Of a DNA stretch of 64,000 bases, positions 560 to 47,171 are shown piece after piece. This stretch comes from an uncultured Acidobacteriia bacterium (lineage in GTDB: Bacteria; Acidobacteriota; Terriglobia; Bryobacterales; Bryobacteraceae), in assembly GCA_903828455.1 (NCBI GenBank), contig CAIKMJ010000041.1, forward strand, positions 124,001-188,000, read 5' to 3'. The first letter of the stretch is position 1. Each line of letters opens with the position of its first letter. A program made the translations under genes and the position numbers. The notes below the pieces were generated by a model. The model did not search any database, was not told the origin of the DNA, and saw nothing but the letters and a program-made list of their open reading frames with translations.

Positions 560-592
560 GTACCGCGGGAAGCAGGTATCGCGGGAAGCAGG
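545..592. repeat. 16-bp tandem repeat, 3 copies, spanning a stop codon
   Basis: Three consecutive copies of a unit close to TACCGCGGGAAGCAGG lie at 545-560, 561-576 and 577-592. The first copy contains the TAG stop of the preceding gene, so the array extends from the coding end into the spacer. The units differ by one base each. Confidence 0.85.
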
Positions 593-601
593 CGGCCGCG
601 G

Positions 602-830
602 GCGTTTGCGCGCGCCGTTCCGCCTGGCCGGCCGCGCGCCGCTAAGTCTGGGCGGACGCGGCGTTTGCGCGCGCCGTTCCGCCTGGCTGGCCGCGCGCCG
701 TTCTGTCTGGGCGGACGCGGTGTTTGCGCGCGCTGTTCCGCCTGGCCGGCCGTGCGCCGCTAAGTCTGGGCGGACGCGGTGTTTGCGCGCTTTGTTCTGT
801 CTGGCTGGCCGCGCAACGGTTACGCCTGAT
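602..830. repeat. 59-bp tandem repeat, about 3.9 copies
   Basis: A 59-bp unit beginning GCGTTTGCGCGCGCCG starts at 602, 661, 720 and 779, and the last copy is degenerate and truncated. It fills the 260-base space between the partial gene ending at 559 and the convergent hydrolase ending at 820. Open frames across it exist only because the unit lacks stops and show no recognisable protein. I see no gene here. Confidence 0.85.
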
Positions 831-24280: not shown

Positions 24281-24379
24281 TCGCGAAATCCAAAAGCCGG
24301 TCGCGAAATCCAAAAGCCGGTCGCGAAATCCAAAAGCCGGTCGCGAAGTCTAAAAGCCGGTCGCGAATTGCAAAGCCGG
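24281..24379. repeat. 20-bp tandem repeat, 5 copies, intergenic
   Basis: TCGCGAAATCCAAAAGCCGG at 24281, 24301 and 24321 (identical), a variant at 24341, and a 19-base variant at 24361. It lies upstream of the PEBP gene, between it and the end of holB. There are no spacers, so it is not CRISPR. Confidence 0.95.
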
Positions 24380-24419
24380 TCGCCGCGATTCCGGCACGCG
24401 ATTGCGGGTGGCTCGTGCG

Positions 24420-33875: not shown

Positions 33876-36011
33876 TCAATACTGCGCGTGAACCTTCGAC
33901 ACCGAATAGTCGCCGTCCGAGCCGTGGCAAACCGAGCAGGCTTCGCCGAGGGCCGTTGTGGCGCTCAACATGTGGGATGCATCGGCCTTCGCGGTGTGGC
34001 AACTGCCGCACGCCGCCGTTGTTGCCTGCGTCGGAGTAATCCAGCCCTGCGGATTCGTCACCGGATTCAGGCCTTCGGGCAGATTCTGTTCGCTGCCGCC
34101 GGTGTGGCAAAGCGAGCAGTTTCGGGTATCGCCGGCGCTGCCGGCGGGACTGAACGGCGGATAGAGGACGCCTGAAAAATCGTTGTGCGAGCCGCCGAAA
34201 CCAACCACAACGTAAGGATACTGGGCGCCATCGGCCACGTTGTTCGCGCCCCGGTGGATGTTGTGAATCAGCAGGTCGAAGTTGATGCCCTGCGGCGGCA
34301 GCGCTTTGTCGGTGGCGTTCACCGCGGCGGGCCGCACCGGTATGTCTGTTGCGGCCGGATTATGACACTCGACGCAGTATTCCGTGTTGTTGCGCAGCCC
34401 GCCGTGGATGGAATCGAACTTCACATGGCACTGCTGGCAATTGGCCAGCGCCACAACCTTGCGCCGCGGCGTAACGGCGGAACCATCCACCGAGAAGTAG
34501 GACACCGGATTCAGCGCGCCATACGTCACGCTCTGCTGTTTCGGCGTTCCCGCGAGAATGGTCTCGGTTCGCCGGGCTTCCATGCCGATCACGAACGTAC
34601 CTGTCGCGGTCGCCGGCACTGCATGGTTGAAGGTATACGTACAGGTGCCGTCCGCGGCGCAGGATGCGGTTGTAAGCGCACTTTCCGAAACATAACCGGG
34701 CGTGGTCACGTCGCTGCCGAAACTGGTGAGACCGTAGTCGGTCGTCGGCCCGGACATATTCAGCGAGAGGCTGCCCAGCAACTTCGGCGAAATTCCGTTG
34801 CCGCTGCTGTCGGTCAGCTTAAAGGTCACCACCGGCTTGCTGCCCGGCGTGCCGTTTTTCACGCTGACGATGGTGGCGTTGATTCCGCTCAGCAGGGATG
34901 AATCCGTGGGTACCACGTGCGATCCGATCACGGAATTGTCGAAATCCTGGGTTCCCACCGGGATGTGGCAGGTGGAACACTTGGAATCGTCCGTGTAAGC
35001 GCCGCCCGCATGGTTGGCGCCGGTGGCGAAATTCACGTTGTCGTGGCACGAGCCGCAGACTACCCGCGTCGGGTTGGTCGCATAAGCTGTCGCCTGCGCC
35101 GCCCCGCTTTTCTGATCGTGGCAAACCGTGCAGCGCTGCACATTGGCGGGATCGACGACTTTGGAAAAATCAGTAACGCCGGTGCCGCTGCCGAACTGGT
35201 AGGCCTTGCCGGCGACCACGCTGGGCAGCGAGGAGCCGCTGTGGATCTTGTGGATCATCACCTTGAAATCAGCGGAACTCCCCGTGTTCGGGTCCACGTT
35301 CTGCGGCTGATGGCAAAGCACGCACATTTCCACGCCCCGGCGCCGTCCGCCGTGGAACGAGAGCTGGTCATGGCAACGGTCGCAGGAGGCGGTCCGCACC
35401 ACGTCGCGCGTTGTGACAACCTTCGATCCGTTGGGAACGAAATTGAATGTCGCGCTGGCGTAGTTTGTGGTGAGGTTATAAGTCGTCAGAACGCGGGAAG
35501 CGTAAATGCCGATGGTGTGCGTGGCGGTGGGGTCGAATCCGGCCGCTTTTGTGCTGAATTTATAGGTGTACTGGCCGGCGGCGATCTGGGTCGTCGTGCC
35601 GCCGGAATCTGCTGTCGGCTGGTTGACAGAGGGGATCAGCGTTCCGGTGACTGTCCTCGTGATGTAGCTCACGTATTGCGTCTGGCCGTTCGGAATGTAG
35701 GCGGCGAGAAAGCTGAGCGTAATCGCGCCCGGTGTGGTTACGCCGGCGATGTCGAGCGGCAGACCGCCCGGGTCGGCGACGGTGAACGTTGTTGTAATCG
35801 TTCCGTCACTGGCGATGGCGGCGGACTGGATGGTGAGATTCAGGCCCGGGCGAACGAATTCCGCCGTGGGGGTATCGAGGAAAAAGGCCTTCTGGTGCTG
35901 GTTGAGGAAATCCTTAATCGGTCTGGTCCGTGCGGACTGCGCGGCACCGGCAGCCACAATCGCGAGTCCAAGTGCAACAACCCAGGTCTTCTTCTTTCGC
36001 AGCGTCACCAT
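33876..36011 (-). CDS. OmcA/MtrC-like extracellular decahaem cytochrome c
   Basis: 711 residues, first gene of the operon. Two immunoglobulin-like beta domains alternate with two pentahaem regions: CDRCH, CVLCH, CTVCH, CGSCH, CSTCH and then CQQCH, CVECH, CSLCH, CGSCH, CSVCH. This is the OmcA/MtrC layout of an outer-surface terminal reductase. The N-terminal signal peptide ends without a lipobox Cys, so it is probably not a lipoprotein, unlike Shewanella MtrC. How it stays on the surface is unknown. It is divergent from a monohaem cytochrome gene with a 112-base shared promoter region. Confidence 0.93.
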   Translation of the reverse strand: MVTLRKKKTWVVALGLAIVAAGAAQSARTRPIKDFLNQHQKAFFLDTPTAEFVRPGLNLTIQSAAIASDGTITTTFTVADPGGLPLDIAGVTTPGAITLSFLAAYIPNGQTQYVSYITRTVTGTLIPSVNQPTADSGGTTTQIAAGQYTYKFSTKAAGFDPTATHTIGIYASRVLTTYNLTTNYASATFNFVPNGSKVVTTRDVVRTASCDRCHDQLSFHGGRRRGVEMCVLCHQPQNVDPNTGSSADFKVMIHKIHSGSSLPSVVAGKAYQFGSGTGVTDFSKVVDPANVQRCTVCHDQKSGAAQATAYATNPTRVVCGSCHDNVNFATGANHAGGAYTDDSKCSTCHIPVGTQDFDNSVIGSHVVPTDSSLLSGINATIVSVKNGTPGSKPVVTFKLTDSSGNGISPKLLGSLSLNMSGPTTDYGLTSFGSDVTTPGYVSESALTTASCAADGTCTYTFNHAVPATATGTFVIGMEARRTETILAGTPKQQSVTYGALNPVSYFSVDGSAVTPRRKVVALANCQQCHVKFDSIHGGLRNNTEYCVECHNPAATDIPVRPAAVNATDKALPPQGINFDLLIHNIHRGANNVADGAQYPYVVVGFGGSHNDFSGVLYPPFSPAGSAGDTRNCSLCHTGGSEQNLPEGLNPVTNPQGWITPTQATTAACGSCHTAKADASHMLSATTALGEACSVCHGSDGDYSVSKVHAQY

Positions 36012-39850: not shown

Positions 39851-40120
39851 ATGCCTGCTCTCCCAACTCCGCCCGAGGCTGCGGTTCGCCGCAGCGTAAG
39901 TCTTCCGGGCGATCTCGCCGATAAAGTCAATCGGATTGCCGAGGCGCGGCGGGTGAGTCAGAATCGGGCGCTGACCGATTTGATCCGCGACGGAATTGCG
40001 GCCTGGGAGCAGCGGCGCAAGGAGTTTTTTGCCCTCGCTGATTCCTTTCAGAAATCGACCGATCCGAAGGAGTCCGCACGGCTGCGCGATGAACTCGCGC
40101 GCCTCACTTTTGGCGGCTGA
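39851..40120 (+). CDS. Ribbon-helix-helix (CopG-like) protein, probable antitoxin or regulator
   Basis: 89 residues. RRSVSLPGDLADKVNRIAEARRVSQNRALTDLIRDGI is the beta-helix-helix of the RHH superfamily, followed by a charged helical tail. Its TGA overlaps the ATG of the next gene (TGATG), as in antitoxin-toxin or regulator-partner pairs. Confidence 0.82.
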   Translation: MPALPTPPEAAVRRSVSLPGDLADKVNRIAEARRVSQNRALTDLIRDGIAAWEQRRKEFFALADSFQKSTDPKESARLRDELARLTFGG

Positions 40121-40460
40121 TGCCGGAAATCCCGTGGCTGGATCTGCCGGCGGCACTCCGGCCGCAGCGCTTTGATCGGGCAAAAGAATTTGATCGGGCA
40201 AAAGAATTTGATCGGGCAAAAGAATTTGATCGGGCAAAAGAATTTGATCGGGCAAAAGAGCGCCGCTTGATCGGGCAAGAGAGCGCCGCATCAAAATGGA
40301 AGATCTCTTCGCGCTTGAGGAATGGCGTCGCCACTCGCCACAGGTTCCGGACGGGCCGTGGTTCAAGGACTTCGGTTCGTTCATGCTTTGCGGCGAGGGA
40401 TCTTACCCAAAGACATTCCTGCTTAAAAGGCAGATTCCCTTTGGGATGGAAGTGGAGTAA
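40120..40460 (+). pseudogene. Repeat-expanded, frameshifted small gene coupled to the RHH gene
   Basis: The first frame starts MPEIPWLDLPAALRPQR, then five Phe-Asp-Arg-Ala-Lys-Glu units from an 18-bp repeat (40171-40260). After a sixth, degenerate unit that has lost one T (at 40267), the frame changes. In the shifted frame the sequence continues ...ARERRIKMEDLFALEEWRRH, then VPDGPWFKDFGSFMLCGEGS and YPKTFLLKRQIPFG, and stops at 40458-40460. The joined protein reads coherently as one conserved-looking small protein with a single ancestral FDRARERR segment. Whether it is a dead gene, phase-variable or translated from an internal start (ATG 40296) cannot be decided. Family not recognised. Confidence 0.7.
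40171..40260. repeat. 18-bp tandem repeat, 5 copies plus a degenerate copy
   Basis: TTTGATCGGGCAAAAGAA is repeated in phase with codons five times. A degenerate copy lacking one T follows at 40267-40289 and causes the frame change. Confidence 0.95.
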
Positions 40461-41609
40461 TTATTCCACCTGCAGCGAAACCCAGCCGGGCAGCGTTGCC
40501 GGCTTGTTTTTCAGAAACACCACACGGCGTGTTTTGGGGAACGGCATGCCGGTTTTGATTGCGCGTTCATAAAACGGCAGCGCCGCCAGCACCTTGCGAT
40601 GATCCTGATCCGGGGCGCCGATCGCGGCTGACTTGCTCAGGAAGCCCGCGCCCCATCCGATCGCCAGCAGGCAACCGCCGCCGGCGCGCGCCTCGGCCAG
40701 ACTCTTCTGCAGCGCCGCAACCGACCCGGCCAGCGCCTCCAGCCCCGTCCACTTCGCATACTGCGCGTGCAGTTCGAGTTGCTTTTCGGCGTAACGGTTG
40801 GCCGCGTCGAACAAATGTTTTCGTGTCACCGGCTGGCCCCAGTGCAGCGAGCGCCGCACCTCTTCGCCGTTCAGAAACGCATTCTCGCGCCAGATGCCTT
40901 CGAACGCCGATCCCGGCGCCGCCATCTCGGCAAAAGTCGGCGTGCCGCTTTCGGGACGATTGCCTTCCGCCGCGCCGCGTCCCGCCTGCTTCCAGCCGAG
41001 CGCGTACTGTTCCGGCCCGCGCGCGATGAGCGTCGAAAGCCGCAGCATGTAGACGCGGAAGGCGTCGCGCGCGGCCGGCGCGGAATCGGTCACCGAGAAA
41101 ACGCGCAGCCGGTCGGATCCGCCCGATCCGGCAGCCTGCTGTTCGATGTGTTCAGCCGGACGGCGCGACGGCCGGTCGCCCGCCAGCCGCTTCGCGGTGT
41201 CTTCCATCGCCGAAGGTTTCATGTGCGCGAACACGTACGCCGTGCGCAGCGCTCCCTTGATGGCTGCGCCGGGCAGGAACGCGCCATCGCCCGAATCGGC
41301 AAAGGTCGGGATGAAGCAGTTCTCGAGCGGCGCGCTGTTGAGTTGCGGCGTGCAGGAGGCGTCTTCGAACGGGATGCGGCGTCCGGCGTAATTCTGCGCA
41401 AAGCCGCCCCACGAAGCGAAATCGAGCCGGGTCGCTTTGCTCAGCTGCTGCAGATAGCCATCGAGCCGCGGGCCTTTGGCCAGCAATCGGAAAATGCGCG
41501 GCTGATTCAGAACGTTGATCTGATCGCGCCACACCATGTAGTCGATGGGCGAGAGGCGGCTGCCGTCGCCGACCAGCGTGGGCGTCAGCACTGTCACGCG
41601 GTACTTCAC
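40461..41609 (-). CDS. csm5: Type III-A CRISPR RAMP protein Csm5
   Basis: 382 residues. The first strand MKYRVTVLTPTLVGDGSRLSPIDYMV and the RAMP glycine loop LPGAAIKGALRTAYV match Csm5, which caps the crRNA 3' side of the Csm backbone. It is the last gene of the operon, and its ATG overlaps the csm4 stop (ATGA). Csm5 recruits maturation nucleases in studied systems. No nuclease gene follows here, because the next genes are convergent on the other strand. Confidence 0.92.
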   Translation of the reverse strand: MKYRVTVLTPTLVGDGSRLSPIDYMVWRDQINVLNQPRIFRLLAKGPRLDGYLQQLSKATRLDFASWGGFAQNYAGRRIPFEDASCTPQLNSAPLENCFIPTFADSGDGAFLPGAAIKGALRTAYVFAHMKPSAMEDTAKRLAGDRPSRRPAEHIEQQAAGSGGSDRLRVFSVTDSAPAARDAFRVYMLRLSTLIARGPEQYALGWKQAGRGAAEGNRPESGTPTFAEMAAPGSAFEGIWRENAFLNGEEVRRSLHWGQPVTRKHLFDAANRYAEKQLELHAQYAKWTGLEALAGSVAALQKSLAEARAGGGCLLAIGWGAGFLSKSAAIGAPDQDHRKVLAALPFYERAIKTGMPFPKTRRVVFLKNKPATLPGWVSLQVE

Positions 41610-42580
41610 GCAGTCACCTCGCCGGGCAGCCCAACCGCCAGCGCGAAGCCGGCTCGATAGGCCGGGTGCGGAAAACCATCCGGCGCCACATTGACGGCGC
41701 GGCCCTTCAGCGAGGATGCCGCCAGCACCGAGCCTTCTTCAATCATGCGGACATGTTTCTTGCGTGCGGCGCCGGCGCGGCTGTCGGTCCAGCCGCCGCG
41801 CGCGATGGCGGAGTAGCTGCCGCCCGACCAGTCGATCGCGTCGTCTGCGTGCGGCGAATAGAGCGACAGCAGCCAAAGCGCCGTGGCATCGGACGCGGGA
41901 AACTGCGCTGCGGGGAACAGCGACGGGGCGTCGGCGAACTCCGGCTCGGCGGCGCGTCCCCAGCCCAGCGAGCGTTCGCCGCCGAAACCGGAATCGGCAA
42001 GCAGCCGCAGTGCGGATTTCACGCGCGCTTCCCACTGGTCACTTTCGGATGCGCGGATTTCGAGCAATCCCCACCACCCGGCGCCCGCGGCAAATTCGAG
42101 GCATGCGGTGCGATGCGGCTCCACGTTGCCGGTGAGGCGATCCACCGCGGCGGCCGACCGAATCGATACGGTGAACGGCGCGGCGGTGCCGGCCGGAAGC
42201 AGGCATTCGGTGGCGCCGTCAACCATCCATTTCGATTCATCGCTCATGCCGTGAAGCGCTACTTCGAGCGGCACCAGCTTCGCGGCCTTCGCGTACAACT
42301 TACCCGGCGCGGCCGGCGGCCACGTGGTTTTCGGCGGCGGAACCAGCCGCACGCCATTCACAACCGGAAACAGCGAACTGAAACGAACCAGCGAGCCGGC
42401 CTCCGCGCGCGCCGTTGCATCCAGCCATTCATCGAGCCAGCCCAGCGCCGACATCGCGTGAGTCACAGCCGAGTACAGCGCGTCGCTGTGATAGACGGTG
42501 TCCACGCGCTCGCGGTCGCCGGCGCGGTGACCGGCGCGCCACGGAGTCGTGGGGCGCAGCTGAATTTCGAGAAGAGCCAT
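41606..42580 (-). CDS. csm4: Type III-A CRISPR RAMP protein Csm4
   Basis: 324 residues. Opens with the ferredoxin-like strand LLEIQLRPTTPW, has the conserved YHSDALYSAVTHAM block, a RAMP loop near GFGGERSLGWGRA, and a C-terminal GEVTA. Csm4 binds the 5' tag of crRNA and docks Cas10. It lies 50 bases after csm3 and overlaps csm5. Confidence 0.9.
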   Translation of the reverse strand: MALLEIQLRPTTPWRAGHRAGDRERVDTVYHSDALYSAVTHAMSALGWLDEWLDATARAEAGSLVRFSSLFPVVNGVRLVPPPKTTWPPAAPGKLYAKAAKLVPLEVALHGMSDESKWMVDGATECLLPAGTAAPFTVSIRSAAAVDRLTGNVEPHRTACLEFAAGAGWWGLLEIRASESDQWEARVKSALRLLADSGFGGERSLGWGRAAEPEFADAPSLFPAAQFPASDATALWLLSLYSPHADDAIDWSGGSYSAIARGGWTDSRAGAARKKHVRMIEEGSVLAASSLKGRAVNVAPDGFPHPAYRAGFALAVGLPGEVTA

Positions 42581-42630: not shown

Positions 42631-43461
42631 TCAGGCGACCAGCGAATCGCCGATCTCCTGCACCTTCGCCTGCAGACCGGCCAGATCGACGCCGGCTGCG
42701 ACTTCCTTTTCCGCCGCGCCGGCCGCGTAGTAATCCTTGCCGCGCCAGGTGAGCTTCAGGCCGTTGAAACTGACGCGTCCGCTGCCGCGCGAACCGCCGC
42801 CGCCGAGCGCGTCGTCTTCGAGCAGCCGCAGGCCCTGCACCACCAGCGCCGCCAGCGCCGCGTCTTCGGCGCAGAGCAGATCGAGCACCATGCGGATGCG
42901 GAACTTCGCCCCGGCCGGCACGCGCTCCAGGGTGCGCGGATTGGCCTGCGACGTGATGCGGTCGATGGCGTTTTCGCTTTTGACTTCCGTCAGTTCGTCG
43001 TCGAGCGTTTCCCGCATCTGCGGCGTAATGCTGTCGGCCACCAGCGGCGCGTCGAACACGCTGAGGCGCGCGGGCGTGGCGTGATTGCTCTCGATATCGC
43101 CGCCGCCGACCTTCTCCATGCGGCTCGGGCTGCGGCCGAAGAGGATGCAGATTTCATCGTCCGGCCGGTCGCTCTGGTGGATGCGAACTTCCTGCCCTTT
43201 GCGCTTCGAAATGTAGACCAGTTCGGAGGGCACGGCCGCGCCGGTGGCCTGCTCGAGCAGCGCCCGAATGCGTCCGCGCAGCGTGCTGCCGGGGACGTAA
43301 GGCCGCCCGTGGGCATCCTTCACGACGGGGTTGTCGGCGCCGCCGATCTCCAGCGAACCTTTGCCCGCGCCGACGTGGAGGCCGGTCTCGCAGTGCATTT
43401 CGCCTTCGAGAATCAGTTTGCCGATCAGCTTCAGTTCCGTTTGTGCAGTATGGGCGCTCAT
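42631..43461 (-). CDS. csm3: Type III-A CRISPR backbone nuclease Csm3
   Basis: 276 residues. Contains ETGLHVGAGKGSLEIGGADN, then PVVKDAHGRPYVPGSTLRGRIR: the standard Csm3 N-terminal half. Asp43 in GGADNPVV aligns with the catalytic Asp (position 32/33 in staphylococcal and streptococcal Csm3) that cuts target RNA at 6-nt steps. Target-RNA slicing is therefore probably intact. The glycine-rich loop is ALGGGGSRGSGRV. Confidence 0.93.
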   Translation of the reverse strand: MSAHTAQTELKLIGKLILEGEMHCETGLHVGAGKGSLEIGGADNPVVKDAHGRPYVPGSTLRGRIRALLEQATGAAVPSELVYISKRKGQEVRIHQSDRPDDEICILFGRSPSRMEKVGGGDIESNHATPARLSVFDAPLVADSITPQMRETLDDELTEVKSENAIDRITSQANPRTLERVPAGAKFRIRMVLDLLCAEDAALAALVVQGLRLLEDDALGGGGSRGSGRVSFNGLKLTWRGKDYYAAGAAEKEVAAGVDLAGLQAKVQEIGDSLVA

Positions 43462-43486: not shown

Positions 43487-44269
43487 CTATTCGTTATATG
43501 CAACGATCGCTTCGAATAAGTCGCGGAAGCGTTCGTAGCCGCGGGCGTCGTTCTTGCGCGTCACCTGCAGCAGCAGGCGTTCCAGCTGATCCAGACTGCG
43601 CAGTCCGTGGCGCGCAATCGTGTAGGCGAGGCGCGCGCGCAGCATCACGAATTCATGCTGGCGTTCGTTTTCCGGCGCACGCGTTGCCCGGCGCACGGCG
43701 TTATAGAAACGGCGCAACTGGCTGCGCGTGCCGGAATCGAGATCGCGCAGACGGCTGACAACGATGTGCGCCTGATTGTCGAGATAAAGACTGTCGCCGA
43801 CGAGCTTATCCAGATCGATCTCGGGCGGACCGTCGAAGCGGCGCTCGCCACTGTGACGCTCACCGCCGGGACGTCCGCCGCGTTCACCACCACGATGCTC
43901 GCCACCACGATGCTCGCCGCCGGGGCCACGCCCGCCGCGCTCGCCACCGGGACGCTCACCACCACCCCGGTCACCACCACCCCGCTCGCCACCGGGACGA
44001 TCGCCGCCGCCAGGACCGCGTCCGCCGCCTTCTCGCGGCGGCCGATTTTCGCGATTGCCGCCGCCCGGCCGCTGCCCCTGCTGCTGCGGGCGCCCGCCGG
44101 CAGGTCTTGCCGATGGAGCCGGAGATGCCGAAGGCGAAGCCGGTGCGGCCGCCTCCGCGGGTGTTGCCGCCGGCTCCGGTGCCGCGCTCGGCGCTACCTG
44201 CAGTCCGCCCAGCGCTCCCTGCAATGCCTCTTGTAACGTGCCTTTTGGTGTCGCCTGCTCGTCAGCCAT
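43487..44269 (-). CDS. csm2: Csm2 small subunit with long RGG-like N-terminal extension
   Basis: 260 residues. Typical Csm2 is about 120-150. The C-terminal part (150-260), with SGTRSQLRRFYNAVRRA and RNDARGYERF-like helices, is a normal Csm2 helical bundle that binds target RNA in the filament. Residues 25-57 are Ala/Pro/Ser-rich, and residues 58-145 are almost only Gly, Arg, Glu, Asp, Pro and His in five-residue units such as GGERG, GGDRG, GGEHR. The extension is disordered by composition, resembles eukaryotic RGG RNA-binding regions, and is built partly from 15-bp duplications. Start ATG 44269 is the first available. Confidence 0.9.
   Translation of the reverse strand: MADEQATPKGTLQEALQGALGGLQVAPSAAPEPAATPAEAAAPASPSASPAPSARPAGGRPQQQGQRPGGGNRENRPPREGGGRGPGGGDRPGGERGGGDRGGGERPGGERGGRGPGGEHRGGEHRGGERGGRPGGERHSGERRFDGPPEIDLDKLVGDSLYLDNQAHIVVSRLRDLDSGTRSQLRRFYNAVRRATRAPENERQHEFVMLRARLAYTIARHGLRSLDQLERLLLQVTRKNDARGYERFRDLFEAIVAYNE
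43835..44098. repeat. Degenerate 15-bp repeats coding for the Csm2 RGG tail
   Basis: Includes exact tandem pairs such as CCACCACGATGCTCG at 43887-43901 and 43902-43916, and a CACCACCCCGGTCAC/CACCACCCCGCTCGC pair further on. Units encode five residues each (GG-acidic-basic-X). Confidence 0.85.
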
Positions 44270-44325: not shown

Positions 44326-45849
44326 CTAATCCTCGGCGAGGCGCGCCCATTCCAGCGCGACCAGACCTTCCGGCCGCAGCTTCAGCCGCCCCTTGATGCG
44401 CCGCCCCGCCATCTCTTTCATCAGATGCGATCGCAGCTTTTGAAATTCCCGTTCCCGCTTGTTGCCCACTCGCGCGAAGCGCCGCTGGAAGCGCAGAGCC
44501 CGCGCCATCAGTCGCTCTTCGTCGGCGGGTGTCGCCGAACCGGCCGAAGCTTCCACCTTCTTATAGAGGTTGCGCAACTGCCCCAGAAACACGCGGCCGC
44601 CGCGGAACTCTTCGTTGATCTGCACCACGGCGTCCTTCAGATCCGCGGCATCGTTCAGTTGCTTCCATTCGAGCACGCGGCCCAGCATGTGGAAACAGTC
44701 TTTATCCGTCGCGCGCGCAATGGCGAGGTCGCGGCCACAATCTTCGTAAACCCGCGCCAGCGGCTCGCCGGGCTCGGCAATGGCCAGCGCCATGGTGAGA
44801 GTCTTGGCCTCGGCGCCCGGCAGATCTTTCAGTTGTTCCTGCGCGAAGCGGGCGAACACGCGCTCCAGTTCCCGCGCAAAGCCGGCCAGCGAATCCCATG
44901 CGCCGAACAGCGCAAAGTCCGCACCGCCGGAATACAACACGGTCACGCGCTGGAAATACTGGCCCTGCGAGCAGAGCAATTCAATCTCGCCGGCAAGAAA
45001 CTGCTTGTAGAGCATTGAAAGGTGCACGTGCTCTTCCACGCTCTGCACGCGGCGCATGCGTGTGCCGAAATCGTCGACCTCGCCCCGCAGCACGGCCCAC
45101 AGCTTTTCTCCGCGGGCGCGGCGCGCCAGATCTTTCGGCAGCGCGACGGCCTCTCCGCTGCGTGCCGCATGGCGCGCAACCGGCAACGCGGCATCCGCGC
45201 CCACGTCCCACGTCAGGTGCGCTGGCGGTTCGGCGCTGGCGGTCTCCGCCGGCTCGGCGGCTTCGGGCGTTTCCGTCGGGGTCGTTTCCGGCGGAGTCGT
45301 TTCCGCGCCGGACTTCTTCGTCGCCGCGGCACCCGAACAGATCAGCGATGCGATATCGAAGCCCCAGGCGATGGCCGGCGCGTCGCGCAGATCGCGCGGA
45401 ATGCGGTCGGCGCCCGGTCCTGAAGGAACGTACGGTTCGAAGAATCCCGGCTCGGCGGGGCGGGCCTGCGAATGCGCGCGCATGCCCTCTTCGAGGCGCT
45501 TGCGCACCACCGTCCAGTCTCCCAGATTTTCCGTTGAACTCCAGGCGATCCGCATCCGGCCCGCCGTGACCCCGCTCAGCAATTCGGAAACGCGGGCCAG
45601 AAACGTGGCGGCCCGATCGGCGCGCGCCTGATCGGGAAGGATGACCAGAAAGCGGTCGCTGCCGGATGACCCGAGCAGCAGCGTCGGCAGTTCCAGTTCG
45701 GCCAGCAGGGCGCGCGGGATAGCCTCGCCGAGCAGAGCCAGCCACATGGAGCGGGCTTCGAAGGCGCGGTTATCGCGGTCGGCCGGAGGGAAAAGAAGAA
45801 AGTCTTCAGAGCCCAGCAGCTTGCCCTGTAAGAGGATCTGCACTGACAT
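44326..45849 (-). CDS. cas10: Cas10/Csm1 without HD domain and with GGAD in the palm
   Basis: 507 residues, against about 750-850 for usual Csm1. The N-terminus starts directly in the first palm-like domain (SGSDRFLVILPDQARAD). No HD nuclease domain is found. Between palms, the four-Cys zinc ribbon is absent and replaced by a Thr/Pro/Glu/Ala-rich linker (175-210). The second palm has LWAVLRGEVDDFG and then YSGGADFALFGAWDSL: the GGDD cyclase motif is GGAD (308-311; bases 44917-44928). The C-terminal D4 helical domain is present. Single-strand DNase and cyclic-oligoadenylate synthesis are therefore both doubtful. First gene of the csm operon. Confidence 0.9.
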   Translation of the reverse strand: MSVQILLQGKLLGSEDFLLFPPADRDNRAFEARSMWLALLGEAIPRALLAELELPTLLLGSSGSDRFLVILPDQARADRAATFLARVSELLSGVTAGRMRIAWSSTENLGDWTVVRKRLEEGMRAHSQARPAEPGFFEPYVPSGPGADRIPRDLRDAPAIAWGFDIASLICSGAAATKKSGAETTPPETTPTETPEAAEPAETASAEPPAHLTWDVGADAALPVARHAARSGEAVALPKDLARRARGEKLWAVLRGEVDDFGTRMRRVQSVEEHVHLSMLYKQFLAGEIELLCSQGQYFQRVTVLYSGGADFALFGAWDSLAGFARELERVFARFAQEQLKDLPGAEAKTLTMALAIAEPGEPLARVYEDCGRDLAIARATDKDCFHMLGRVLEWKQLNDAADLKDAVVQINEEFRGGRVFLGQLRNLYKKVEASAGSATPADEERLMARALRFQRRFARVGNKREREFQKLRSHLMKEMAGRRIKGRLKLRPEGLVALEWARLAED

Positions 45850-45956: not shown

Positions 45957-47171
45957 ATGACAACTATTCACCGGTTTGCCCTGGGTTCGTTTTTGCTGTT
46001 CGGGGCCGCCATCGCGGCCATGGCGCAATCCGCGCCTGCCGGGTTCGTGGGCAGCGCGGCCTGCAAAGGCTGCCACCCTCAGGTTTACGAACGCTGGGCG
46101 AAAACCCGCATGGCGAACGTCGTGCGCGACCCCAAAGAACATCCCGACGCCATCATCCCCGACCTCAGTAAGGCCGACTCCGCCCTCGTGACGTTCAAGA
46201 AGGAAGACATCGCCTTCGTCTACGGCAGCAAGTGGAAGCAGCGTTACTTCACGAAGGTCGGCAACGACTACTTCCCGCTCGGCGCGCAGTGGGACGTGAC
46301 GCATCAGAAATGGTCGGCCTACAACACGAAGAAAGGCACCGACTGGTGGACCGCCTTCTATCCCGAAACCAACATGGAGCGGCCCACCGGTCCGCTCTGC
46401 GACGGCTGCCATTCGGTGAACTACAACATCCGGACCAATCAGGTGACCGAATGGAACGTTGGCTGCGAGCGCTGCCACGGGCCGGGCAGCGCACACGTGG
46501 CGAAGCCGTCTGCGGCTAACATCGTGAATCCCGCGAAGCTCGATACCGTCCGCGCCGTCGATACCTGCACGCAGTGTCATTCCCAGGGCCAGCCGGTTTC
46601 CAGCCCGATCAACGGCAAGTATTACGACTGGCCCGTGGGCTTCCAGATGGGCGGCAACCTGAGCGACGTCTGGAAACTGGAAGACCACACGCTCGGAGAA
46701 ACCACTTTCACCCACTTCCCCGACGACACCGCCCATAAGAACCGCATGCAGGGCAACGATTTCGTGCAAAGCGCCATGTACACCCACGGCGTGACGTGCA
46801 GTTCGTGTCACGACGTGCATGGCACGGAAAACAACGCCGACCTGCGGCAAGCCGGCCAGGCGATGTGTCTCACGTGCCATGCCCCGAAATCGCCCAACGG
46901 TCCGCGCGCGGCGTCGATCGAGGAGCACACGCACCACAAGGCGGGCAGCGCGGGAAGCAACTGCCTCGAATGCCACATGCCGAAGATCGAGGCCACGATG
47001 CCCGATGACTTCGTGCGCAGCCACACCTTCCGCTTCATCACGCCCGATATGACGGAGAAGTACAAAATGCCGAACGCCTGCAATTCGTGTCACGCAGACA
47101 GGTCGACGGCGTGGGCGAAGGAAGCACTGAAAAGCTGGAGCGACAAATCGCCGTGGCGTGTGGCGCAGTAG
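45957..47171 (+). CDS. Secreted octahaem cytochrome c
   Basis: 404 residues with a signal peptide ending AMAQS. Eight CxxCH motifs: CKGCH, CDGCH, CERCH, CTQCH, CSSCH, CLTCH, CLECH, CNSCH, plus many His for distal ligation. The arrangement GFVGSAACKGCHPQVYERW and the later CERCHGPGSAHV resemble the cytochrome c554 / multihaem family. Substrate unknown. Divergent from cas10 with a 107-base spacer. Confidence 0.9.
   Translation: MTTIHRFALGSFLLFGAAIAAMAQSAPAGFVGSAACKGCHPQVYERWAKTRMANVVRDPKEHPDAIIPDLSKADSALVTFKKEDIAFVYGSKWKQRYFTKVGNDYFPLGAQWDVTHQKWSAYNTKKGTDWWTAFYPETNMERPTGPLCDGCHSVNYNIRTNQVTEWNVGCERCHGPGSAHVAKPSAANIVNPAKLDTVRAVDTCTQCHSQGQPVSSPINGKYYDWPVGFQMGGNLSDVWKLEDHTLGETTFTHFPDDTAHKNRMQGNDFVQSAMYTHGVTCSSCHDVHGTENNADLRQAGQAMCLTCHAPKSPNGPRAASIEEHTHHKAGSAGSNCLECHMPKIEATMPDDFVRSHTFRFITPDMTEKYKMPNACNSCHADRSTAWAKEALKSWSDKSPWRVAQ

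What the first reader, a model, noticed from the sequence alone, without database searches (positions are those of the whole stretch)
43487..44269. Csm2 carrying an ~120-residue RGG-like disordered extension
Csm2 is normally a compact helical subunit. Here its N-terminus has Ala/Pro/Ser then Gly-Arg-acidic pentads. Because several Csm2 copies line the filament next to target RNA, each complex would bear several RGG tails. Known: RGG regions bind RNA and promote condensates in eukaryotes. Inference: target-RNA recruitment, tethering or clustering of Csm complexes, perhaps compensating for the reduced Cas10.
Basis: partly seen in the sequence, partly recalled or inferred. Interest (0 to 1): 0.88.

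Follow-up and report, generated by a model that had tools for sequence, protein, structure and literature searches.

The report
Tailed Csm complex kept family-wide
A CRISPR-type RNA-cutting complex whose small subunit carries a long arginine/glycine-rich floppy tail turns out to be an old, almost universal and strongly conserved gene set of one soil-bacterium family, often without any detected CRISPR memory, which suggests a cellular RNA job rather than ordinary virus immunity.

Summary
The window's Csm2 (43487-44269, minus) is a 112-residue helical core behind a 148-residue N-terminal tail, Ala/Pro/Ser-rich then Gly/Arg/acidic. All 98 orthologous loci read carry such an extension (39-174 residues); 13 other Csm2s of the family have no RG-rich tail.

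The larger finding lies around it. The cas10-csm2-3-4-5 operon belongs to a family-restricted Csm lineage: any Csm2 in 135 of 150 family genomes; the lineage profile hits 51 of 54 family genomes and 0 of 196 others of the class. The Csm2 core averages 87% pairwise identity, RecA 82%, in 26 genomes, and its distances follow RecA's. Cas10 is short and HD-less, GGDD is lost in this clade; Csm3's Asp is kept in 93 of 94. No cas1, cas6 or array was found beside the operon; a cas6 occurs in 130 of 150 genomes, here on another contig.

Best reading: a vertically inherited Csm ribonuclease kept as a cellular RNA machine, Csm2 tails lining it as multivalent contacts. RNA binding, guide and target are untested. 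Borrowed-crRNA defence is the main rival.

The parts
43487..44269 (-). csm2, 260 aa: tail plus Csm2 core
   Evidence: TIGR01870 43 bits, PF03750 42.5 bits; Foldseek's first 13 hits are chains of Csm complexes, one (6ae1) titled Csm2 and the rest of Csm2 size
43826..44269 (-). N-terminal disordered tail of Csm2 (residues 1-148)
   Evidence: block-mean pLDDT 41-61; homologous extensions in 98 of 98 loci
43826..44053 (-). Gly/Arg/acidic part of the tail (residues 73-148), begins with the recurrent RENRPPREG motif
   Evidence: 15-bp periodicity
44213..44233 (-). short predicted N-terminal helix (residues 13-19, within GTLQEALQGALGGL); low confidence
   Evidence: similar stretch matched by a loose pattern in 8 of 93 tails; look-alike seen by eye at the N-terminus of outgroup Csm2s
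43490..43825 (-). Csm2 core (residues 149-260); 63 columns at least 98% conserved in 93 proteins
   Evidence: helical bundle pLDDT 78-94
44326..45849 (-). reduced cas10/csm1, 507 aa, no HD domain found
   Evidence: AlphaFold pLDDT 87.5 and Csm1 fold, TM up to 0.72 by query length
44914..44934 (-). degenerate cyclase motif YSGGADF (Cas10 residues 306-312; YSGGDDL in 9g9a)
42631..43461 (-). csm3 (Cas7), 276 aa
   Evidence: TIGR02582 189.5 bits; phmmer to 4qts E 7.9e-41
43333..43335 (-). codon of the presumed catalytic Asp of Csm3 (D43, GGADNPVVKD); that this Asp is the catalytic one is recalled
   Evidence: aligns with GGTDNPVIRD of 4qts and GGIDNPVIKD of 6muu; motif in 93 of 94 orthologues
41606..42580 (-). 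csm4 (Cas5), 324 aa, without the acidic tail seen in relatives
   Evidence: TIGR01903 137.4 bits; relatives
40461..41609 (-). csm5, 382 aa, overlaps csm4 by 4 nt
   Evidence: TIGR01899 51.4 bits

Best explanation
This is a Csm (type III-A-like) ribonucleoprotein that was fixed at or near the base of one acidobacterial family (Bryobacteraceae by the record titles of relatives) and has been inherited vertically as a near-core operon. It has lost the defence outputs (no HD nuclease; cyclase motif gone in this clade; no adaptation genes or recognised signalling effectors beside it) but keeps the RNA-binding backbone and the Csm3 residue that cuts target RNA. Proposed working: Csm4 and Csm3 wrap a guide RNA, probably trimmed by the Cas6 encoded elsewhere; Csm3 binds and cuts complementary cellular RNA; several Csm2 copies line the filament, each projecting an Arg/Gly/acidic tail, so that one complex bears a multivalent brush that raises local RNA or partner concentration and may cluster complexes. 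Shown: gene content, conservation, distribution, tail, motif states. Inferred: guide, target, cutting, tail function.
For: Around 98 lineage Csm2 loci, tblastn finds csm3 in 98, cas10 in 97, csm4 in 93 and csm5 in 72, many loci being cut short, while the window's flanking genes are not shared. Any Csm2: 135 of 150 family genomes (103 of 109 good ones); lineage profile 51 of 54 in the family, 0 of 196 outside it in the class; any Csm2 outside the family 3 of 196. Cas1 in only 83 of 150. Mean pairwise identity in 26 genomes: Csm2 core 87.0%, RecA 82.1%, Csm3 75.2%; distance correlation with RecA 0.52 and 0.53, 0 of 2000 permutations. Csm3 Asp motif in 93 of 94. Cas10 ORF at most 581 aa, median 484, in 82 orthologues. 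GGDD exact in 27 of 47, lost in all 14 rows at 59% or more Cas10 identity to the window, itself included. No cas1 or cas6 like this genome's in the window or in 80 csm loci. Cas6 in 130 of 150; 19 of 20 fetched cas6 regions hold orthologues. Extensions in 98 of 98 loci, none RG-rich in 13 other Csm2s of the family.
Against: No guide RNA was found: no conserved non-coding block beside the operon in this clade, no Rfam hit around five cas6 genes. Cas6 itself hints at CRISPR-like precursors. GGDD is intact in 27 of 47 relatives, so signalling may persist in other branches. Several genus members and up to 36 of 150 family genomes hold arrays, and this genome has a type I-C-like array and a Cas1 on other contigs. 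12 of 150 genomes have Csm2 but no detected Cas6. Losses exist: all four sampled genomes of genus g8 and both of g64 lack Csm2. RecA has two copies in this family and the best hits may mix them, which lowers its figure.
Confidence: 0.55

Rival explanations
1. It is still an immune effector: the Csm complex borrows crRNAs in trans from whatever arrays the cell owns (type I-C, III-B, RT-Cas1 loci), made by a shared Cas6, and simply cuts phage mRNA through Csm3.
For: Arrays with repeats ending GGGGATTGAGAC or GGGGACTGAAAC occur in several genus members; one (G124) lies beside a Cmr2 and a RAMP gene with the cas6 orthologue about 7 kb from the array. This genome has a type I-C-like array. Cas6 and Csm2 are absent together more often than chance over all 150 genomes (8 both; p=9e-5). 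In-trans sharing between CRISPR loci is reported (PMC11229360, passages).
Against: 46 of the 123 genomes with both Csm2 and Cas6 have neither Cas1 nor an array of the searched type; Ca. Solibacter usitatus was reported to have cas genes and no CRISPR (PMC3174227, passages). RecA-like conservation and vertical descent are unusual for defence genes (general knowledge). The joint absence of Cas6 and Csm2 is not significant among near-complete genomes (2 of 6; p=0.13), so incomplete assemblies explain part of it.
Confidence: 0.33
2. The tail is a solubility brush, spacer or docking peptide for a protein partner (for example Csm4's acidic tail or the transcription machinery), not an RNA-binding or condensing element.
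For: Near-neutral polyampholyte, median one aromatic residue. Many relatives carry acidic Pro/Glu-rich Csm4 C-termini or Csm4 inserts. A short N-terminal helix-like stretch in 8 of 93 tails could be a docking motif.
Against: High Arg/Gly content and the recurrent RPPR motif (66 of 93) resemble RNA-contacting low-complexity regions (general knowledge). Csm2 tail and Csm4 tail do not always go together: the window has a long Csm2 tail and no Csm4 tail.
Confidence: 0.35
3. The tail is a neutral by-product of 15-bp minisatellite slippage, or a mis-called start.
For: 15-bp periodicity in the tail and other 15-bp repeats in the window.
Against: 98 of 98 loci keep an open extension; synonymous codons are mixed, and lag-15 mismatch is higher at third positions (0.680) than at first and second (0.552, 0.562). 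In the window no start between codon 16 and the core. Unique among 269 ORFs sampled.
Confidence: 0.05
4. Leftover cas genes from a former CRISPR system, as proposed for Ca. Solibacter usitatus in 2011.
For: No array or cas1 beside the operon; reduced Cas10; PMC3174227 reads three cas genes as remnants (passages; that they belong to this operon is my inference).
Against: The operon recurs across the family, Csm2 core averages 87% identity, Csm3 Asp motif in 93 of 94. Decaying genes would not look like this.
Confidence: 0.03

Closest known systems
Type III-A CRISPR-Cas (Csm) effector complexes, e.g. 6muu, 9g9a, 6xn3, 7uzw
   Same: Gene content cas10-csm2-csm3-csm4-csm5; folds of Csm2 and Cas10; Csm3 Asp motif
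   Different: No HD domain found, cyclase motif lost in this clade, no cas1, cas6 or array detected beside the operon; N-terminal RG-rich tail on Csm2; near-universal and vertically inherited in one family
Csm systems in three class genomes outside the family (G164, G172, G316)
   Same: Csm2 with an N-terminal extension (CxxC..CxxC Zn-ribbon-like; in G164 also RDRPPRQDRPPRPPREG) and a similar first helix by eye; short Cas10, 622 and 548 aa, Pfam palm2 and no HD hit, in G172 and G316; in G164 the 487-aa ORF before csm2 has no Pfam hit and is Cas10 by position only
   Different: Rare (3 of 196 outside the family), not hit by the lineage profile, G316 has a cas1 next to it
Type III loci without HD and/or cyclase (types III-C and III-F as described in PMC11229360)
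   Same: Loss of one Cas10 activity
   Different: There 92% of Cas10s keep a cyclase and III-F generally keeps HD (passages); here HD is absent and, in this clade, the cyclase motif too
Mycobacterium tuberculosis type III-A, reviewed as having roles beyond immunity (PMC13334790, abstract and outline only)
   Same: Csm system with little spacer acquisition and proposed cellular roles
   Different: Works through cOA and Csm6 there; no such effector was recognised beside this operon
Eukaryotic RGG/RG proteins (general knowledge)
   Same: Arg/Gly-rich low-complexity sequence
   Different: Here many Asp/Glu, almost no aromatic residues, near-zero net charge; resemblance only

Membership tests
Type III-A CRISPR-Cas effector (Csm) | Csm2, Csm3, Csm4 and Csm5 subunits encoded together | tested here: met
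   All four over NCBIfam cut-offs: 43/30.6, 189.5/90, 137.4/55, 51.4/38.3 bits
Type III-A CRISPR-Cas effector (Csm) | Cas10/Csm1 large subunit with palm fold | tested here: met
   Pfam palm2 56.9 bits and Csm1_B 27.2 bits over cut-offs; fold match. The whole-protein NCBIfam Csm1 score, 128.7, is under its cut-off of 170
Type III-A CRISPR-Cas effector (Csm) | HD nuclease domain in Cas10 (common, not obligatory in III-A) | tested here: not met
   No HD hit in Pfam; 507 aa; N-terminal block aligns only from chain residue 271 of 9g9a, a weak alignment on its own (i-Evalue 4.4); ORF at most 581 aa in 82 orthologues
Type III-A CRISPR-Cas effector (Csm) | GGDD cyclase motif | tested here: not met
   GGAD in the window; GGDD exact in 27 of 47 relatives; of the 20 others two are near-misses with both acidic residues, GSDD and GGDE
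Type III-A CRISPR-Cas effector (Csm) | Csm3 catalytic Asp | tested here: met
   GGADNPVVKD; 93 of 94 orthologues; activity itself not tested
Type III-A CRISPR-Cas effector (Csm) | CRISPR array and processing or adaptation genes at the locus | tested here: not met
   tblastn with this genome's Cas6 and Cas1: none in the window or the 80 genome contigs csm loci. Repeat scan flagged the window (a 59-bp tandem repeat) and five csm loci; L043, L090, L101 were read and are tandem or coding repeats, L069 and L097 lie between the csm4 and csm5 matches and were not read
Functional CRISPR immunity | crRNA-guided targeting of foreign RNA | not testable with these tools
   No transcriptome or pull-down; no guide identified
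RGG-box RNA-binding proteins | Clustered RGG/RG repeats | tested here: met
   Six RGG, eight RG in residues 73-148; RGG in 57 of 93 and three or more RG in 73 of 93 homologous tails
RGG-box RNA-binding proteins | Net positive charge and/or aromatic residues favouring RNA binding and condensation | tested here: not met
   Median net charge +2 (range -4 to +6), median one aromatic

The most novel reading that the evidence does not exclude
A whole bacterial family has domesticated a Csm complex into a core, guide-dependent RNA regulator or RNA-processing machine, fed by a Cas6 encoded elsewhere from a non-CRISPR or single dedicated guide RNA, with Csm2 as its most constrained part and its disordered Arg/Gly tails forming a multivalent RNA-gathering surface. 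It would be a bacterial analogue of an Argonaute-like cellular RNP rather than an immune system.
Probability: 0.4. Interest if true: 0.93.

Novelty: new variant of a known kind. Interest (0 to 1): 0.8.

Why it matters
CRISPR effectors are normally patchy and fast-evolving (general knowledge). A Csm small subunit about as conserved as RecA, near-universal in a family and kept in many genomes without detected cas1 or arrays, would be a clear case of a type III complex turned to a cellular task. It makes the open question of what non-defence Csm complexes do directly testable: pull down Csm2 from a relative without arrays and sequence the bound RNA. The tail gives a naturally varied series (39-174 residues) for testing what RG-rich tails do on an RNA-guided filament.

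Tried and rejected
Minisatellite artefact or wrong start: rejected. Remnant operon: disfavoured. Tail compensating for Cas10 loss: only a weak, ancestry-confounded length difference. A dedicated guide next to the operon: looked for conserved non-coding blocks up to 900 bp upstream of cas10 and 700 bp downstream of csm5 in 65 and 64 sequences (window included); in the window's clade nothing beyond the gene ends, and the blocks conserved elsewhere appear to coincide with neighbouring ORFs. Rfam around five cas6 loci: no hit. Arrays: two tag patterns, TTGARAC and CTGARAC (12 genomes), plus one repeat stem with up to 3 mismatches (19 genomes); arrays with other repeat ends or only two repeats would be missed, and some hits (for example G041) look like plain tandem repeats, so 36 of 150 is neither a full nor a clean count. 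The G000 hit reads as a short tandem repeat. RecA as clock is imperfect because the family has two recA copies. In one search I read some other Csm2s on the wrong strand; corrected. The first GGDD count (regex, 29 of 94 unmatched) was replaced by the alignment count. Cas10 lengths were chosen near 500 by my script and are not used; the unbiased upper bounds are. Pfam on ten window neighbours gave cytochromes, a stress protein, beta-propellers, GAPDH and an outer-membrane barrel, no CRISPR effector (two small ORFs without hit); neighbours in other loci were only clustered, not scanned. Literature searches listed no paper whose title or abstract start describes a family-wide Csm or an RG-tailed Csm2; only open-licence PMC papers are covered.

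Full report
WHAT IS THERE. On the minus strand, 45849 to 40461, lie cas10-like, csm2, csm3, csm4 and csm5. Csm2 to Csm5 pass their NCBIfam cut-offs; Cas10 does not pass the full-length Csm1 model (128.7 against 170 bits), being short, but passes Pfam palm2 and Csm1_B. Csm2 is 260 aa: residues 1-148 are a tail, 149-260 the core. Residues 73-148 contain 32 Gly, 17 Arg and 13 acidic residues of 76, with six RGG and a net charge of +4. AlphaFold with a 45-row alignment gives block-mean pLDDT 41-58 over residues 1-140 and 78-94 over 151-260, a helical bundle. Foldseek's first 13 matches are chains of Csm complexes (prob 0.80-1.00, TM by target length 0.52-0.68), although no E-value is below 0.001.

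THE TAIL IS REAL AND SHARED. The only possible internal start in the window's tail is a TTG at codon 16. In 98 orthologous loci (18 from the genome search, 80 from genome contigs; 93 distinct proteins) the extension is open in every case, 39-174 aa, median 68. Composition over 93 tails: Gly 23%, Arg 18%, Pro 14%, Glu 11%, Asp 7%; RGG in 57 of 93, three or more RG in 73 of 93, RPPR in 66 of 93. Starts usually lie close to the end of cas10: -28 to 10 nt in 52 of 92 with a measurable gap (counted). Synonymous codons are mixed and lag-15 differences are most frequent at third positions, so composition rather than a fresh DNA repeat is preserved. In 269 ORFs from 344 kb of the same genome nothing else reaches its G+R. 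Thirteen other Csm2s of the family, present as second copies and not matched by the lineage core, have N-parts mostly of 34-55 aa where a start with an SD motif is readable (L002 has none, L004 several), G+R 0.15-0.34, and no RG-rich tail; two contain a single RGG.

THE LARGER FINDING. PF03750 finds a Csm2 in 135 of 150 family genomes (103 of 109 good ones). A profile of the conserved core (A1) scores 210-237 bits in 51 of 54 family genomes of a class-wide sample of 250 and finds nothing in the 196 others (the 54/196 split follows from the kinship order of the listing); any Csm2 occurs in 3 of those 196. Around the 98 lineage Csm2s, csm3 is found in 98, cas10 in 97, csm4 in 93 and csm5 in 72, many loci being cut short, while flanking genes change. 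Identity to the window (best tblastn segments): Csm2 core 77-96%, Csm3 60-90%, Csm4 40-72%, Csm5 44-76%, Cas10 28-68%. In 26 genomes the mean pairwise identity is 87.0% for Csm2 core, 75.2% for Csm3 and 82.1% for RecA; distances of both Csm proteins correlate with RecA (Spearman 0.52 and 0.53; 0 of 2000 permutations). RecA has two copies in at least 21 of 28 genomes (two hits over 400 bits) and best hits may mix them, so 'as conserved as RecA' is fair and 'more conserved' is not proven.

LOST AND KEPT PARTS. No HD domain is found in Cas10; the ORF from its first Met is at most 581 aa, median 484, in 82 orthologues; the model (pLDDT 87.5) fits Csm1 chains with TM up to 0.72 by query length. The cyclase motif is YSGGADF instead of YSGGDDL. 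Among 47 aligned rows GGDD is exact in 27 and lost in 20: all 14 rows at 59% or more Cas10 identity to the window (the window included) and six others, two of which keep both acidic residues. The Csm3 Asp motif is present in 93 of 94. Pfam finds no CRISPR effector in ten window neighbours.

WHERE THE GUIDE MIGHT COME FROM. A Cas6 domain occurs in 130 of 150 family genomes (97 of 109). In the window's genome it is a 277-aa gene on another contig, next to a SpoU-family methylase, without a repeat array in the 12 kb read. Of 20 cas6 regions fetched, 19 hold orthologues; the 18 from other genomes are 30-52% identical to it. Cas1 is in 83 of 150 (60 of 109) and TTGARAC-type repeats in 36 of 150 (31 of 109). 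Of 123 genomes with Csm2 and Cas6, 50 have no Cas1 and 46 have neither Cas1 nor such repeats. This genome has a type I-C-like array at the end of contig C29 and a Cas1 on C33. In the genus, one array lies beside Cmr2 and RAMP genes (G124), and Cas1-like genes occur within the stretches fetched around arrays of G160 and G161; the array of G162 shows no Cas1 or Csm match in the 12 kb read. A published analysis of Ca. Solibacter usitatus reports three cas genes and no CRISPR and calls them left over (PMC3174227, passages). No dedicated guide was found.

MECHANISM. Shown: operon, folds, motif states, conservation, distribution, tail. Inferred: a guide-bearing Csm filament that cuts RNA through Csm3 with Cas6-made guides, and Csm2 tails as a multivalent brush. 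The tails are polyampholytes with few aromatics, so RNA binding is plausible but condensation is not predicted by composition. Csm2, usually a weakly conserved subunit (general knowledge), is here the most conserved of the five, which suggests a fixed RNA or protein partner. Csm4 in many relatives carries an acidic Pro/Glu-rich C-terminus or a long insert, a possible charge partner; the window's Csm4 does not.

ORIGIN. Three class genomes outside the family carry Csm2s with an N-terminal extension: a CxxC..CxxC Zn-ribbon-like segment, a similar first helix by eye, and in G164 an RPPRQDRPPRPPREG stretch. Two of them have a short Cas10 (622 and 548 aa) with palm2 and no HD hit; in G164 the ORF before csm2 (487 aa) has no Pfam hit and is Cas10 by position only. 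G316 has a cas1 beside it. This suggests, without a tree, that the family's operon descends from an HD-less CRISPR system with an already extended Csm2.

VERDICT. Observation confirmed; interpretation partly supported; the wider and more surprising result is a family-wide, vertically inherited Csm complex.

Noticed in passing
L032-L035, L037-L040, L042-L045, L048, L055, L060, L094, L099, L108 (csm4 3' part); L049, L053, L063, L068, L073 (csm4 insert): Csm4 orthologues carry acidic Pro/Glu-rich C-terminal tails or long internal inserts, sometimes as coding tandem repeats; the window's Csm4 has neither.
   Followed up: partly
L267 8196-9107, L268 2273-3103, L269 983-1564: Csm2s outside the family have an N-terminal extension with a CxxC..CxxC Zn-ribbon-like segment and a DAMKKAGL-like first helix.
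   Followed up: partly
G000:C58:2479-3312 (L123): cas6 standing away from any array, a Cas6 being near-universal in the family (130 of 150); far more divergent than Csm2; its substrate is unknown.
   Followed up: partly
G000:C29:1-210 (L216, L175): Type I-C-like array (repeat GTCGCCCCCCGCGTGGGGGCGTGGATTGAAAC) at a contig end; a Cas1 lies near the end of C33.
   Followed up: no
window 40171-40259: Perfect 18-bp tandem repeat TTTGATCGGGCAAAAGAA, 4.9 copies, just past the 3' end of csm5 inside an ORF (40120-40572) beside a small ORF (39851-40120); neither has a Pfam hit.
   Followed up: no
window 591-814, 1727-1921, 24281-24383: Other tandem arrays: 59-bp, 15/45-bp and 20-bp units.
   Followed up: no
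G000:C30, G000:C27 and other family genomes: Two full-length recA copies in at least 21 of the 28 family genomes examined.
   Followed up: no
window 33876-36011 and 45957-47171: Multihaem cytochromes (MtrC/MtrF-like and cytochrome c3/c7-like) on either side of the csm operon.
   Followed up: no
genus g8 (G007, G079, G114, G136) and g64 (G064, G107): Sampled genomes of two genera that lack Csm2; those of g64 also lack a detected Cas6. Possible natural deletion lineages for comparison.
   Followed up: no
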